From: an uncultured beta proteobacterium | Lineage (GTDB): Bacteria; Pseudomonadota; Gammaproteobacteria; Burkholderiales; Rhodocyclaceae | Assembly: GCA_903917505.1 (NCBI GenBank) | Contig: CAIXAY010000526.1 | Location: 1-5,373 of the forward strand | DNA: 5,373 bases | Reading direction: 5' to 3' | Shown: positions 1 through 4,033 of the stretch, one piece after another | How the letters are laid out: each line of letters starts with the position of its first letter | Position numbering within the stretch: position 1 is the first letter of the stretch | Notes under the pieces: model-generated | The model's input: only the letters and a program-made list of their open reading frames with translations | The model's database searches: none | What the model was told of the DNA's origin: nothing | Position numbers and translations under genes: made by a program

Positions 1-16
1 GGACTCTCAGGAGTCC
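1..16. repeat. Short perfect inverted repeat at the left edge
   Basis: The first 16 bases are GGACTC, a TCAG spacer, then GAGTCC, a perfect 6-bp stem with a 4-base loop. It overlaps the last codons and the stop codon (7-9) of the truncated TRAP binding-protein gene. No T-run follows on the minus strand within the window, so it is not a demonstrable terminator. It could be chance, a small mutational palindrome, or a fold-back artefact if the window begins at a contig end. Confidence 0.45.
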
Positions 17-831
17 ATTTCAAGCAATCGACTGGCTACCTTTTGCTCCGCCTCGCTGGCTCCCAATTCCGCGCCATTCACAGACAAGGCTTCGAATTTG
101 GCCTTGTTCATCGCAACCAGCAGGGCACTATAGGCATGGTTCGTCATGCTCAGGTATTTCTGCACTTCGTAGAACTTTCCTGAGTAAAGCAGACCAAGTG
201 ACTGCTCTTGCGAATCCACGGTCTTCATTTCCAGGGCCGTGTACAGTTCACCGATCGGCATCGGAACCGGATTGGCACCGAGCAGTTTCCATGTCTCATT
301 GTGCGCCGGACTGCCGTTCGTGCGCACTTTCAAGCCCTTCACGTCGGCCGGCGTGTGCACCGGTTGGCGCGAGTTGGTCAATTCCCGCCAGCCGGTATCC
401 CAATACGCCAGGCCTTTGAGTTCGACGTCGCCGAGCTTGTCCATGATTTCTTGCCCGATCTTGCCATCCAGAACGCGGTAGGCATGCGCCGTGTCCTTGA
501 AGATGAAGGGAATATCAAAGACGCCGAGCAGCGGGACGATACCGGTGTAATTGGACGAACCCGAAATCACGATGTCGATGGTGCCTGAACGCGCGCTTGA
601 AATGGCGGCCTGGGCGTTGCCCAGCGAGCTATCCGAGAAGACCTTGATGTCGAGTTCGCCGTTGGTCTTGGCCTTGAGCAACTCGTTCATCTTTTCCCCA
701 CCCGCCGTCTGCGGATCGCTGCGCGCCGCTTCCGAAGCAAAGCGCAAAGTCACGGCCTGGGCTGTGCCCATGATTCCAGCCAGCAGGCCGGCCAGCAGCA
801 ACGACTTGAAAAAAGAATTCTTCAATTTCAT
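7..831 (-). CDS. dctP: TRAP transporter solute-binding protein, DctP family, C-terminally short
   Basis: Periplasmic receptor of a tripartite ATP-independent periplasmic transporter; it would deliver a substrate, typically a carboxylate or sugar acid, to DctQ/DctM membrane subunits not seen here. The 274-residue product starts with a Sec signal peptide: K2, K4 and K9, a hydrophobic core at about 11-24, and cleavage after AQA at residue 26. Family hallmarks follow: the TGWRE/TNSRQPV segment (147-157), GLKVR with R170, the arginine expected to contact a substrate carboxylate, and LGANPVPMPIGELYTAL (184-200), then VDSQEQ (205-210). The start is supported by AGGGGAG at 845-839, 7 bases upstream. 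Relatives usually have about 325-335 residues, so roughly 50 C-terminal residues are missing: the frame stops at TGA (9-7) in the helix where homologs continue. Whether this is nonsense, frameshift or sequencing error cannot be told, as only 6 bases remain. Substrate is unknown. Confidence 0.85.
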   Translation of the reverse strand: MKLKNSFFKSLLLAGLLAGIMGTAQAVTLRFASEAARSDPQTAGGEKMNELLKAKTNGELDIKVFSDSSLGNAQAAISSARSGTIDIVISGSSNYTGIVPLLGVFDIPFIFKDTAHAYRVLDGKIGQEIMDKLGDVELKGLAYWDTGWRELTNSRQPVHTPADVKGLKVRTNGSPAHNETWKLLGANPVPMPIGELYTALEMKTVDSQEQSLGLLYSGKFYEVQKYLSMTNHAYSALLVAMNKAKFEALSVNGAELGASEAEQKVASRLLEMDS

Positions 832-930: not shown

Positions 931-987
931 GACTTTAGATCGTTGTTCGATGCAAAACAAATGATTTAATTTTGATTAGCGTTATTG
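931..987 (+). promoter_or_regulatory. 57-bp shared regulatory element, copy A (upstream of the TRAP gene)
   Basis: This AT-rich block matches the reverse complement of 2020-2076 at about 40 of 57 positions without gaps (counted by eye). The core CAAAACAAATGA (953-964) is identical in both copies, and the outer GACTTTAGAT (931-940) differs from its partner by one base. CGTTAT (980-985) is also shared. It sits between the lysR stop and the TRAP start, with its GACT end 99 bases from the TRAP ATG. Relative to the downstream gene it has the same orientation as copy B has to the transaldolase gene. I infer a promoter/operator controlled by the LysR-type protein encoded between the copies. Confidence 0.6.
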
Positions 988-1011
988 TTTTTCGTAATGC
1001 TCTGCCTCCGC

Positions 1012-1956
1012 TCAGTGGTACAGCTCGGTCGCGATCTTTCTGATCTGGTTCAGCAACAGGCTGGCGCCCGGTGTCAGCACGGTATCGCGCCGCGTGATGA
1101 TGCCGAAATTCGCCATCTTGCACGGGATGTCTATCGGTATGATGGTCAGCGCCCCGGATTGCACATAGTAGTTGGCGATGCTCAGGGGAATCACGTGCAG
1201 ATAATCCGTATCCCGCATCAGGCTGAGGATCAGCGCCATCGACGTCGCTTCGATCACATCGGAAGGGCATTCCAGGCCGGCGTTGCGAAACATCGCATCG
1301 ATGCGGTTGCGCAGGATGCCGACCCGCGAAGTCAATATCCAGCTGGCCTGCGACAAGTCCTGCAAGGTGAGATCGTCACGCGCGGCGAGCGGATGTCCCT
1401 TGCGCGCAACGACGCATTCTATTTCTTCGGACAGGTCCTCGTAGACGAGGCCCGAATCGTCTTCCAGCTCCGGAATTCGCGCGATCAGGAAATCGAGTTC
1501 GTCGCGCCGCAGGCTCGCCAGCAGATCCTTGCTCGTGCCGACTTCGACGCCGACGCTGAGCTTAGGCGCTTCACTTTTGGTCCGAATGATGGCCTGCGGA
1601 ACCAGCGTCAGCGCCACGGTAATGATGATGCCGATCCTGACCTCGCCCGACAGCCCGGCCTTGAGGGCCGCCACCGAGGTCTGCCCGCGTTCGAGATTGG
1701 CCAGCGCCATGCGCACATGATCGATCATCGTCTTGCCGTAGATCGTCGGCCTCAGCCCGCGCGGCAGGCGCTCGAACAGCTGCACACCGAACATGTCCTC
1801 CATGTCCTTCAGCATCTTGGATGCGGCCGGCGCGCTCATATTGGTTTCCTGCGCCGCCTGATGAAGATTTCCCAAGTCGTTCAGGGCGACCAGCAGGACC
1901 ATCTGGCGCGCCTTGAGCGTGGTACGAATCCGACGCGCTGCATCGCTCACATACAT
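1012..1956 (-). CDS. LysR-family transcriptional regulator, GbpR-like
   Basis: A 314-residue DNA-binding regulator of normal LysR-type length. The N-terminal winged helix-turn-helix spans about residues 14-73: LNDLGNLHQAAQETNMS, then APAASKMLKDMED as recognition helix and linker, then FGVQLFERLPRGLRPTIYG. The phrase LFERLPRGLRPT.YG resembles GbpR-like regulators that often sit beside sugar or aromatic uptake genes. From about residue 95 comes a periplasmic-binding-type effector domain beginning GLSGEVRIGIIITVALTLVP. The frame stays open upstream to a TTG at 1989, but ATG at 1956 is preferred because AGGGGGAG (1971-1964) lies 7 bases upstream and the extra 11 residues do not look like family sequence. 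It is divergent from the transaldolase gene and co-directional with the TRAP gene 180 bp downstream; no terminator is visible between them. Its effector is unknown, presumably the pathway substrate or an intermediate. Confidence 0.93.
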   Translation of the reverse strand: MYVSDAARRIRTTLKARQMVLLVALNDLGNLHQAAQETNMSAPAASKMLKDMEDMFGVQLFERLPRGLRPTIYGKTMIDHVRMALANLERGQTSVAALKAGLSGEVRIGIIITVALTLVPQAIIRTKSEAPKLSVGVEVGTSKDLLASLRRDELDFLIARIPELEDDSGLVYEDLSEEIECVVARKGHPLAARDDLTLQDLSQASWILTSRVGILRNRIDAMFRNAGLECPSDVIEATSMALILSLMRDTDYLHVIPLSIANYYVQSGALTIIPIDIPCKMANFGIITRRDTVLTPGASLLLNQIRKIATELYH

Positions 1957-1963
1957 GGTGAGG

Positions 1964-1971
1964 CTCCCCCT
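1964..1971 (-). promoter_or_regulatory. Ribosome binding site deciding the lysR start
   Basis: On the minus strand AGGGGGAG lies 7 bases before ATG at 1956-1954. The alternative TTG start at 1989 has no comparable purine-rich tract, so this site fixes the start at 1956. Confidence 0.75.
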
Positions 1972-2002
1972 GGATTGCAACCGTGGCAATTGCTGCCGAC
2001 CG

Positions 2003-2035
2003 CTTATAGTTATTGAAATGTATAACGAATGTCAA
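2003..2035 (-). promoter_or_regulatory. Possible lysR promoter
   Basis: On the minus strand a perfect sigma-70 -35 hexamer TTGACA (2035-2030) is followed by an AT-rich stretch ending in TAACTATAAG (2012-2003). No -10 hexamer is both well spaced and well matched: TATAAG scores well but lies 21 bases from the -35, and the hexamers at 16-18 bases are poor. The -35 lies inside copy B of the 57-bp element, so a protein bound there could also control lysR transcription, as is common for autoregulated LysR proteins. Confidence 0.4.
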
Positions 2036-2076
2036 TTTTAATTCATTTGTTTTGTATTACACGAACATCTAGAGTC
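2020..2076 (-). promoter_or_regulatory. 57-bp shared regulatory element, copy B (lysR/transaldolase divergent promoter)
   Basis: Read on the minus strand this copy begins GACTCTAGAT (2076-2067), contains the exact core CAAAACAAATGA (2054-2043), and ends with CGTTAT (2027-2022). It parallels copy A at 931-987 over the same 57-base length. It lies in the 163-bp gap between the divergent lysR and transaldolase starts, with its GACT end 43 bases from the transaldolase ATG. A weak -10-like TATTAC (2055-2060) on the plus strand borders the core, but no good -35 accompanies it, which fits an activator-dependent promoter (inference). Confidence 0.6.
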
Positions 2077-2119: not shown

Positions 2120-3154
2120 ATGAGCGAGAACAAATATCTGCAATGGTCGTACAGCGATACGCAAGCCGACTGGTGGCATGACTCGGCAATCATCGAAGAA
2201 CTGGAAGATGCGATGGCCAATGGCGCCGTCGGCTTGACGACGAATCCTCTTCTCATCAAGTTGTCGCTGTTCGCCAAGCCCGATGTTTGGCGCCCGATGC
2301 TCAAGAACATACCGGCATCGCTGACGCCGACGGAGAAAGCGGAAGAAATCGCGCGGGTAATCACCTCGCATCTTGCCGGAAAGCTGCTGCCGATTTTCGA
2401 GAAGACGAAGGGAGAGAAAGGCTTTGTCTGCGCGCAGGTCAATCCGACCCGGGCCGGAGATGCCGCTTTCATGCTCGACATGGCGAGAAGGCTGGCCAAG
2501 TGGGCGCCGAATATTTGCATCAAGCTGCCGGTCACCGCTGCCGGCCTGGAGGTCCTCGAGGAATGCGTCGCCGAAGGCATGAGCGTCTGCGCCACGGCGG
2601 GATTCACCGTACCGCAGGCCCTGGCGATTGGCGAACGGCACATGCAGGGCCTGGCGCGCGCCGCCAAGAACGGCGTCAAGCCGGGCAAGTGCTTCGCCGT
2701 GGTCATGGTCGGACGGCTGGATGACTACTTAAGGGATGTGGCCCACGACCGCAAAGCCAATGTCATGGAAAGCGACATCATCCAGTCGGGAACCGCGGTC
2801 ATCAAGCGCGCCTACACCCTCTTCAAGGAACGCGGATACAAGGCGATCCTGATGCCTGCCGGCATGCGCGGCCATTATCATCTGACGGCCCTAGCCGGCG
2901 CCGCGATGTCGATGTCGGTGGCGCCGAAGATTGCCGGCATGGCATTGGAGATACCCCAGCCGTGGACGGAACATATTCAGGAACCGGTCGCGGCCGATGT
3001 CATCGACCGATTGAAAACCATACCCGAATTCGTCCGCGCCTATGAACCCGACGGCATGAAACCGGCGGACTTCATCACCTATGGCGTCGTGCAGCGGACC
3101 TTGTCGCAGTTTGTCGAGGCCGGCTGGCTGCCGATGGAAGGCTACCAGCTCTAA
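2120..3154 (+). CDS. Transaldolase-family enzyme
   Basis: A 344-residue class I aldolase-type TIM-barrel protein, probably cytoplasmic, expected to form a Schiff base with a ketose-like substrate and cleave or transfer a dihydroxyacetone unit. Visible family motifs: an early acidic strand YSDTQAD (11-17), VGLTTNPLL (37-45, the TTNP signature after strand 2), ICIKLPVTAAGLEVLEE (132-148) with K135 as predicted Schiff-base lysine, SVCATAGFTVPQAL (155-168), AVVMVGRLDDYL (193-204, matching the FVGR.xD segment), and a late barrel segment MPAGMRGHYHLTALAGA (245-261). It is much longer than the compact fructose-6-phosphate aldolase/TalC type (about 220 residues) and its segments differ from standard TalA/TalB, so it is probably a specialised paralog rather than the pentose-phosphate enzyme. 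It is the first gene of the plus-strand group, divergent from lysR, with copy B of the shared element upstream. Family call is confident; substrate is unknown, and sugar phosphate versus unphosphorylated or sulfonated sugar cannot be decided. Confidence 0.88.
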   Translation: MSENKYLQWSYSDTQADWWHDSAIIEELEDAMANGAVGLTTNPLLIKLSLFAKPDVWRPMLKNIPASLTPTEKAEEIARVITSHLAGKLLPIFEKTKGEKGFVCAQVNPTRAGDAAFMLDMARRLAKWAPNICIKLPVTAAGLEVLEECVAEGMSVCATAGFTVPQALAIGERHMQGLARAAKNGVKPGKCFAVVMVGRLDDYLRDVAHDRKANVMESDIIQSGTAVIKRAYTLFKERGYKAILMPAGMRGHYHLTALAGAAMSMSVAPKIAGMALEIPQPWTEHIQEPVAADVIDRLKTIPEFVRAYEPDGMKPADFITYGVVQRTLSQFVEAGWLPMEGYQL

Positions 3155-3161
3155 GAAAGTC

Positions 3162-3229
3162 GTCACACCCGCGAAAACCGGTGTCCAGTGCCTAGGCCGT
3201 ACTGGATTCCGGCTTTCGCCGGAATGACG
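3162..3229. repeat. REP-like inverted pair between transaldolase and SDR genes
   Basis: Two 28-29 base units face each other around an 11-base spacer containing the palindrome GCCTAGGC (3190-3197). The right unit (3201-3229), read on the minus strand, contains a perfect 8-bp stem ATTCCGGC, GAAA loop, GCCGGAAT, the widespread proteobacterial REP-type motif. The left unit (3162-3189) matches it at 22 of 28 positions. Its outer stem (ACACC with GGTGT) keeps pairing although two pairs differ from the right unit, while two inner pairs are broken. The pair begins 7 bases after the transaldolase stop. It may limit 3' decay or attenuate transcription into the SDR gene. Confidence 0.8.
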
Positions 3230-3265
3230 ATGCGGAGCTCTATCTTTGGAATTCTGGATAAATAA

Positions 3266-4033
3266 ATGTCAGCTCTATTTGCCTTGACCGGCCGTACGGC
3301 GCTGGTGACCGGTGCCGGCCGGGGCCTGGGTTTTGCCTACGCGGAAGGCCTCGCGGCGGCCGGCGCGGCGGTGGTGATCAATGACCTGCATGAAGAAAGC
3401 CTGCGCGACGCGCTAGGCAAATTATTGGCAAACAACTACAAGGCACGCGGCCTGGCTTTCGATGTGACCAGCGAAACAGCGGTTGCCGAGGCCTTTGCCA
3501 GGCTGGACCGGGATGGCGTTGAAATCGATATCCTGATCAACAACGCCGGCATCCAGTTCCGCAAGCCGCTGGTCGAGCTCGAGCTGAAAGACTGGCAGCG
3601 CGTCATCGATACCAACCTGAACAGCGCCTTCATCGTCGGCAAGCAGGCCGCCCAACGAATGATCGCGCGCGGGCGCGGCGGCAAGATCATCAACATCGGC
3701 TCGGTCAACAGCCAGGGCGCCCGCCCTTCGATCGCCCCGTACTGCAGCGCCAAGGGGGGACTGGTGATGCTCTCCCGCTCGATGGCGGCGGAATGGGCGC
3801 AGCACGACATTCAGGTCAACACGATCGGGCCGGGTTACATCCTGACCGAGATGACCCAGCCGCTTGCGGACAATCCCGAATTCGATGCCTGGGTGAAGAG
3901 CAGCAATCCGGCCAAGCGTTGGGGCAAGCCCGAAGATCTGATCGGGACAGCGGTTTATCTCGCATCGTCAGCGTCCAACTACGTCAATGGGCAAATTATT
4001 TTTGTCGACGGCGGTTGGCTTTCGGTATTGTGA
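3266..4033 (+). CDS. Short-chain dehydrogenase/reductase, gluconate 5-dehydrogenase-like
   Basis: A 255-residue classical SDR of normal length, a cytoplasmic NAD(P)-dependent alcohol/ketone oxidoreductase. The Rossmann motif TGAGRGLG is at 15-22, NNAG at 92-95, and the catalytic tetrad is complete: N117, S146, Y159, K163. An acidic residue after strand 2 (INDLHEE, D40) suggests NAD rather than NADP preference. PGYILTEMT (189-197) forms the substrate-loop start, and the C-terminal YVNGQIIFVDGGW is standard. Overall texture (FALTGRTALVTGAGRGLG, IQFRKPLVELELKDWQRVIDTNL) is closest, from memory, to gluconate/ketogluconate 5-dehydrogenases and related polyol or sugar-acid dehydrogenases; FabG- or acetoin-reductase-like roles are alternatives. 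The start has only a weak Shine-Dalgarno (TGGA, 3255-3258, 7 bases upstream). It follows the transaldolase gene by 111 bp across the REP-like pair and precedes the E2 gene by 76 bp, with no clear terminator there, so SDR and E2 are probably co-transcribed. Confidence 0.92.
   Translation: MSALFALTGRTALVTGAGRGLGFAYAEGLAAAGAAVVINDLHEESLRDALGKLLANNYKARGLAFDVTSETAVAEAFARLDRDGVEIDILINNAGIQFRKPLVELELKDWQRVIDTNLNSAFIVGKQAAQRMIARGRGGKIINIGSVNSQGARPSIAPYCSAKGGLVMLSRSMAAEWAQHDIQVNTIGPGYILTEMTQPLADNPEFDAWVKSSNPAKRWGKPEDLIGTAVYLASSASNYVNGQIIFVDGGWLSVL

What the first reader, a model, noticed from the sequence alone, without database searches (positions are those of the whole stretch)
931..2076. A 57-bp element in inverted copies flanks lysR and precedes both outward transcription units
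Copy A (931-987, plus) and copy B (2076-2020, minus) align without gaps over 57 bases with about 40 identities, including an identical 12-base core CAAAACAAATGA and a 9/10 match at the GACT end. Because the TRAP and transaldolase genes are divergent, both copies have the same orientation relative to their downstream gene. That is what a duplicated promoter/operator of one regulon would look like, and it ties the TRAP gene to the enzyme genes. The distances to the start codons differ (99 and 43 bases).
Basis: partly seen in the sequence, partly recalled or inferred. Interest (0 to 1): 0.7.

Follow-up and report, generated by a model that had tools for sequence, protein, structure and literature searches.

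The report
Two matching switches around lysR gene
A regulator gene sits between two similar control switches, one for an uptake-protein gene and one for a set of enzyme genes, so one regulator probably turns on uptake and use of the same nutrient; this is a well-supported new example of a familiar bacterial design.

Summary
Confirmed: 40 of 57 positions match without gaps; none of 300 shuffle pairs does as well. Each copy looks like a complete LysR-type promoter: 18-bp inverted repeat (GTTAT-N8-ATAAC in B), 17 bp, CATTTG with -35-like TTGTTT, 17 bp, -10-like TAgAGT/TAaAGT. The same layout lies beside lysR homologues elsewhere. A profile of 9 such sites, none from the window or its closest relative, scores B 30.1 and A 27.6; controls reach 15.2 (2.38 million unrelated positions) and 18.8 (6000 shuffles). 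Five other lysR loci have a second site just downstream of lysR (15.4 to 29.7), but only one is far above the shuffle maximum. Twelve of 12 dctP homologue loci lack the site, so this TRAP gene probably gained a copy of the regulator's operator. The core is not dispersed: 3 of 395 family genomes. The regulator resembles GbpR/AraR-type sugar regulators; membership is unproved. Its clade has Ala/Pro instead of Gln at the recognition-helix start, and its operator half-site differs. New member of a known kind; binding and activation are inferred.

The parts
2009..2026 (+). Copy B, probable LysR recognition site (inverted repeat GTTAT-N8-ATAAC)
   Evidence: Same arm-N8-arm layout and spacing in lysR homologue loci
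2027..2052 (+). Copy B, spacer plus conserved activation/-35 region (TTAATTCATTTGTTTT; -35-like TTGTTT at 2047-2052)
   Evidence: Conserved in L001 and other lysR loci
2070..2075 (+). Copy B, -10-like TAGAGT toward tal, 17 bp from TTGTTT; transcription start predicted near 2082
   Evidence: TANNNT at this offset in 19 of 25 sites; start site inferred
981..998 (-). Copy A, probable LysR recognition site (ATTAC-N8-ATAAC, imperfect repeat)
   Evidence: Profile without window sites scores copy A 27.6
955..980 (-). Copy A, spacer plus conserved region (-35-like TTGTTT at 960-955)
932..937 (-). Copy A, -10-like TAAAGT toward dctP; transcription start predicted near 925
   Evidence: start site inferred
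2007..2035 (-). Possible lysR promoter on the opposite strand of copy B (TTGACA-17-TAACTA), its -10 overlapping the recognition site
   Evidence: Read by eye; similar TTGACT-17-TAACTC in L001; inferred
1012..1956 (-). lysR, 314 aa LysR-type regulator; likely binds both copies
   Evidence: HTH_1 and LysR_substrate; TF_pcaQ best NCBIfam model but below cut-off
7..831 (-). dctP, TRAP solute-binding protein (C-terminal end odd, see Noticed in passing)
   Evidence: PF03480, TIGR00787
2120..3154 (+). Transaldolase-like protein, first gene of the enzyme operon
   Evidence: PF00923; start by homologues
3266..4033 (+). Short-chain dehydrogenase
   Evidence: PF13561
4110..5372 (+). E2 component of a 2-oxo acid dehydrogenase-type complex, cut by the window end
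   Evidence: PF00198, PF02817, PF00364

Best explanation
Each copy is a LysR-activated promoter. The regulator binds the 18-bp inverted repeat, centred about 65 bp before the predicted start of transcription. With inducer it also contacts the conserved region around -35, about three helical turns away, and recruits polymerase to the -10 box. Copy B drives the tal-SDR-E2 operon and probably also holds the regulator's own promoter on the other strand. Copy A, a duplicate of this operator, drives the TRAP binding-protein gene behind lysR. One regulator thus switches on uptake and breakdown together. Shown: the sequences, the fixed layout, its conservation beside lysR, its recurrence. Inferred: binding, activation, start sites, inducer, and that A arose by duplication.
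For: 40 of 57 identity, 0 of 300 shuffle pairs as good. The orthologous tal promoter in L001 keeps the element. Regions upstream of lysR homologues show inverted repeat, 17 bp, CATTTG-like core. A profile of 9 sites without the window or L112 scores B 30.1 and A 27.6, next in the window 6.6, the reverse of B. Maximum 15.2 in 2,377,866 positions of 79 unrelated loci; shuffles of the window's two intergenic regions reach 15.8 (2000 base shuffles) and 12.4 and 18.8 (3000 dinucleotide shuffles each). A site just downstream of lysR in L124 29.7, L129 18.9, L128 18.8, L168 17.1, L165 15.4; the L124 and L128 ones also match a typed pattern with no mismatch. TANNNT at offset 26 in 19 of 25 sites, offset 27 in 4, at most 1 at each other offset from 14 to 42. 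Copy A is closest to the L112 and B operators, 50 and 47 of 71, against 44 or fewer for nine others. dctP homologues: 12 of 12 loci without the site, best score -1.1.
Against: No ortholog of copy A was available. Copy A's two arms are an imperfect repeat. Of 19 lysR loci not used for the profile, 7 (window and L112 included) have a divergent site above 15.2, 6 of them above 18.8; 7 more have a weaker match in the right place and 5 none. Of the five downstream sites elsewhere only L124 is well above the strictest shuffle maximum, L124 and L128 are near-duplicates, and the nine profile loci and L112 have no second site (none above 12.4). The sigma-70 consensus scan does not call these promoters. 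Several compared sites come in near-duplicate pairs.
Confidence: 0.85

Rival explanations
1. Two unrelated AT-rich promoters that look alike by chance or by shared promoter consensus.
For: AT-rich intergenic regions in a GC-rich sequence; weak hexamers not called by the sigma-70 scan; 6 of 200 shuffles also hold two loose core matches.
Against: 0 of 300 shuffle pairs; a profile without window sites finds both copies above all controls; spacing shared with other lysR loci; the core is in only 3 of 395 family genomes.
Confidence: 0.03
2. A dispersed or mobile repeat that landed on both sides of lysR.
For: Inverted orientation around a gene can suggest a composite element.
Against: 1 place in the 3.5-Mb genome G001; 3 places in 395 genomes, each beside a lysR of this kind; the five genes scanned are not transposases.
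Confidence: 0.02
3. The sites are bound by another regulator, and lysR is only a neighbour.
For: No tool shows the binding partner; the non-palindromic core is long for a LysR activation site (my judgement).
Against: The site accompanies this lysR beside operons of differing content, and its half-site differs together with the recognition helix.
Confidence: 0.08

Closest known systems
GbpR-ChvE of Agrobacterium: LysR regulator of a sugar-binding protein gene (passage read in PMC4086400; the Azospirillum gbpR/sbpA case is recalled)
   Same: LysR regulator of a periplasmic binding-protein gene; in A. brasilense L168 lysR has divergent catabolic genes and codirectional chvE downstream, with a site scoring 17.1 before chvE
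   Different: ABC transporter rather than TRAP; window LysR is 36% identical to the L168 LysR; no protein named GbpR was compared
AraR of Halomonas, a LysR factor predicted to control divergent araMFGHCY and araR (passage read in PMC5507952)
   Same: LysR gene, divergent sugar catabolism/transport operon, motif found by genome comparison
   Different: Its motif is in a supplement that was not read; L-arabinose pathway, not transaldolase; the TRAP genes there are assigned to a GntR factor, AraR2
PcaQ of Sinorhizobium (passage on the pcaQ-pcaMNVWX region read in PMC5002191)
   Same: Best NCBIfam model for the window LysR; regulator of a transport operon as well as catabolic genes (catabolic part recalled)
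   Different: Model cut-off not met, 181.4 against 303.8; half-site sequence differs; [quoted passage not shown]
CatR/ClcR operators (passages read in PMC6449761)
   Same: Two-part operator: inverted repeat plus adjacent activation site
   Different: Aromatic catabolism; motif AkACC-N5-GGTAT

Membership tests
LysR-type (LTTR) target promoter | Adjacent gene encodes a LysR protein | tested here: met
   HTH_1 and LysR_substrate above cut-off
LysR-type (LTTR) target promoter | Inverted-repeat recognition site with T-N11-A character | tested here: met
   By eye in both copies; arms of copy A are imperfect
LysR-type (LTTR) target promoter | Recognition site near -65 (place recalled) | tested here: inconclusive
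   Centre about 64.5 bp before the predicted start; start not mapped
LysR-type (LTTR) target promoter | Activation site near -35 on the same helical face | tested here: inconclusive
   Conserved core there, about 31.5 bp centre to centre, but only a weak repeat
LysR-type (LTTR) target promoter | Binding by the LysR protein | not testable with these tools
   needs EMSA or footprint
PcaQ equivalog (TIGR02424) | Score above the curated cut-off | tested here: not met
   181.4 bits against 303.8
GbpR/AraR-like sugar LysR group | LysR and operator beside sugar-acid dehydratase, AraD1/GguC or ChvE genes | tested here: inconclusive
   True of relatives at 44-50% identity, in G463 and G410, not of the window itself
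GbpR/AraR-like sugar LysR group | Direct comparison with a characterised GbpR or AraR protein | not tested
   no such named sequence was fetched
Dispersed or mobile repeat | Many copies in the genome or its relatives | tested here: not met
   1 place in G001, 3 of 395 genomes; the window's own genome is not held

The most novel reading that the evidence does not exclude
A LysR clade switched its DNA specificity: loss of the usual glutamine at the recognition-helix start (Ala or Pro instead) went with a change of the operator half-site from GATAC/GTATC to GTTAT/ATAAC. This insulated a new transaldolase-type regulon from its sugar-acid relatives, and a copy of the new operator then recruited a TRAP gene whose relatives lie behind other genes.
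Probability: 0.4. Interest if true: 0.5.

Novelty: new member of a known kind. Interest (0 to 1): 0.37.

Why it matters
It ties the TRAP transporter to the transaldolase pathway by regulation, a lead to the pathway's unknown substrate. It also gives a compact, testable operator model (fixed spacing, -10 at one offset) for a LysR group found beside sugar uptake and catabolism genes, and a possible specificity switch that a few EMSA probes could test.

Tried and rejected
I looked for a second readable locus with lysR, tal and dctP together and found none. The tal ortholog at E<=1e-90 is in 1 of 28 genus genomes; at E<=1e-60 in 2 of 395 family genomes, one a 33% paralog (at most five candidates per genome scored). 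Viral contigs gave none; plasmids none at 60% identity or more and no record covering 80% of the DNA; phages no near match. Contig lengths in the protein lists hint at linkage only: tal and LysR share 45559, 96973 and 51527; tal and DctP share 131218.

Considered and dropped: chance, dispersed repeat, PcaQ equivalog. The sigma-70 scan found one unrelated site, no more than in shuffles. Paper searches: 0 papers for LysR with TRAP transporter, operator, both promoters and divergent transcription (4 of 5 terms); one paper, seen as a listing, for the gene set of this cluster; some searches were also read as listings. Only passages were read of PMC5002191, PMC6449761, PMC5507952 and PMC4086400; no supplements.

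Full report
Copy A (987-931, minus) and copy B (2020-2076, plus) share 40 of 57 positions ungapped; the best same-orientation score between the two intergenic regions is 25, while 300 dinucleotide shuffle pairs reach at most 15. The pair heads the list of 21 inverted repeats. The core TCATTTGTTTTG occurs nowhere else in the window at up to two mismatches, though 6 of 200 shuffles also had two or more such matches.

Genes: dctP (7-831, minus), lysR (1012-1956, minus), a transaldolase-like gene (2120-3154, plus), a short-chain dehydrogenase (3266-4033) and an E2 component (4110 to the end). Both copies read toward the gene they precede: A toward dctP, B toward tal.

A relative with DNA, L001 (a MAG labelled Accumulibacter, tal 88% identical), has lysR and tal divergent with one copy of the element between them. 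Its inverted repeat starts 47 bp from the lysR start codon, against 52 in the window. From the end of the element to tal there are 176 bp, against 43 in the window. So the element keeps its place relative to lysR. No close dctP lies in that 21-kb locus, and the genes read on the other side of lysR are scpA, scpB and a pseudouridine synthase. The element occurs once in that 3.5-Mb genome.

A search of 395 family genomes for TTAAWTCATTTGTTTTGNAT with one mismatch gave 3 places in 3 genomes and none with the reversed control pattern. The two new places lie between a lysR (59% identical to the window's) and a divergent TRAP dctP of another kind (36-37%). Their inverted repeat reads GATAC-N8-GTATC.

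LysR homologues at E<=1e-80 were found in 6 of 28 genus genomes (8 loci) and 12 of 399 order genomes (at most five candidates per genome scored). Upstream of many of them the same layout appears: 18-bp inverted repeat, 17 bp, CATTTG or CATTGG. A profile from 9 of these sites (L113-L121), without the window and L112, scores B 30.1 and A 27.6; the next window hit, the reverse of B, has 6.6.

Controls for that profile: 2,377,866 positions in 79 loci without this lysR reach at most 15.2, and 2000 base shuffles of the joined intergenic stretches reach 15.8. In 3000 dinucleotide shuffles each, the A side reaches 12.4 and the B side 18.8.

Of the 19 lysR loci not used for the profile (window, L112, L122-L130, L162-L169), 7 have a divergent site above 15.2: window 30.1, L112 27.3, L123 26.2, L124 34.4, L128 30.4, L164 35.0 and L165 16.9. 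Seven have a weaker match, 0 to 10.8, in the right place (L122, L125, L162, L163, L166, L168, L169), and 5 have none (L126, L127, L129, L130, L167). The eight plasmid loci are 8 of the 40 records listed, picked by me. The operator thus fades with distance in the LysR tree.

A second site just downstream of lysR, the arrangement of copy A, was seen in five other loci: L124 29.7, L129 18.9, L128 18.8, L168 17.1 and L165 15.4. Only L124 is far above the strictest shuffle maximum; L128 is a near-duplicate of it, and both match the typed pattern without mismatch. The site precedes an L-arabinonate dehydratase-like gene in L124 (just under that model's cut-off, 873 against 882), a similar frame in L128 (by eye), an aldose-epimerase-like frame in L129 (by eye), an ABC binding protein in L165 and chvE in L168. 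The nine profile loci and L112 have no second site (best other hit 12.4), nor do the longer stretches fetched for seven of the nine show one behind lysR.

In ten genomes chosen because they hold this lysR, a looser pattern with two mismatches gave 28 places against 2 for the reversed control. By my count 14 lie beside lysR and 4 precede sugar-type ABC binding-protein genes (two by profile; two by eye). The other 10, 7 of them with two mismatches, may be chance.

In 25 sites given, a -10-like TANNNT stands 26 bases after the C of CATTTG in 19 and 27 bases in 4; every other offset from 14 to 42 has at most 1. I picked these 25 by score and place, left out weaker divergent sites and two further G410 sites, and several are near-duplicate pairs. 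With a start 7 bases after the -10, the inverted repeat is centred near -65, the usual place for LysR regulators (recalled). On the other strand of copy B, TTGACA-17-TAACTA points to lysR and overlaps the repeat, which would fit self-repression; this is inferred.

Twelve dctP homologue loci were found in 7 of 28 genus genomes (67-88% identical). None of the 12 holds the site; the best score is -1.1. In the ten upstream stretches printed, dctP follows what reads by eye as the end of another gene, probably the TRAP large permease. The window's dctP instead follows lysR directly. Copy A is nearest to the L112 and B operators, 50 and 47 of 71, and shares with them the ATAAC arm and the TCAA-NN-TTAA stretch. 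The likely history is that dctP came to lie behind lysR under a duplicate of the regulator's own operator. A and B differ at 24 of 71 positions, B and L112 at 16, so the duplication is probably not recent.

Among the 120 LysR proteins listed of 352 found, the first 15 have Ser-Ala-Pro or Ser-Pro-Pro at the recognition-helix start, 102 others have Gln in the middle, and 3 could not be read by the pattern. Their operators known here (A, B, L112) carry the ATAAC arm; 16 of the 22 other sites carry RTATC. This suggests a change of specificity but rests on three operators from two genomes.

Naming: the window LysR scores best with PcaQ but below its cut-off. Relatives sit with GguC/AraD1, L-arabinonate dehydratase-like and ChvE genes, like GbpR (PMC4086400, passage) and AraR (PMC5507952, passage). 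I treat it as working like these, not as a proved member.

Noticed in passing
window 1-85: The last ~24 residues of the window's DctP match no homologue (at most 92% of the query covered in the 120 listed, most of which are 329-333 aa), and the window begins with a short hairpin GGACTC-TCAG-GAGTCC at 1-16; the end may be an assembly artefact or a truncated gene.
   Followed up: partly
window 3155-3265: The tal-SDR gap holds an inverted repeat (by eye) resembling a common intergenic repeat (recalled).
   Followed up: no
L134 1-56, L146, L158 17864, L159 10040 and 15067: Genomes G410 and G577 carry further operator-like sites upstream of ChvE and other ABC binding-protein genes, 8-13 kb from lysR and one far away.
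   Followed up: partly
L083 and L084: Distant tal paralogs (33-34%); L083 pairs one with an E2 gene 67% identical to the window's and a TRAP dctP.
   Followed up: no
L001 13312-18913: The L001 cluster continues with a lipoamide-dehydrogenase-like gene, a fused E1, another SDR and an HpcH/HpaI aldolase, a pathway of unknown substrate.
   Followed up: partly
P0121-P0240: Sharp split of the LysR list near 67% identity by the residue at the recognition-helix start, Ala/Pro versus Gln.
   Followed up: yes
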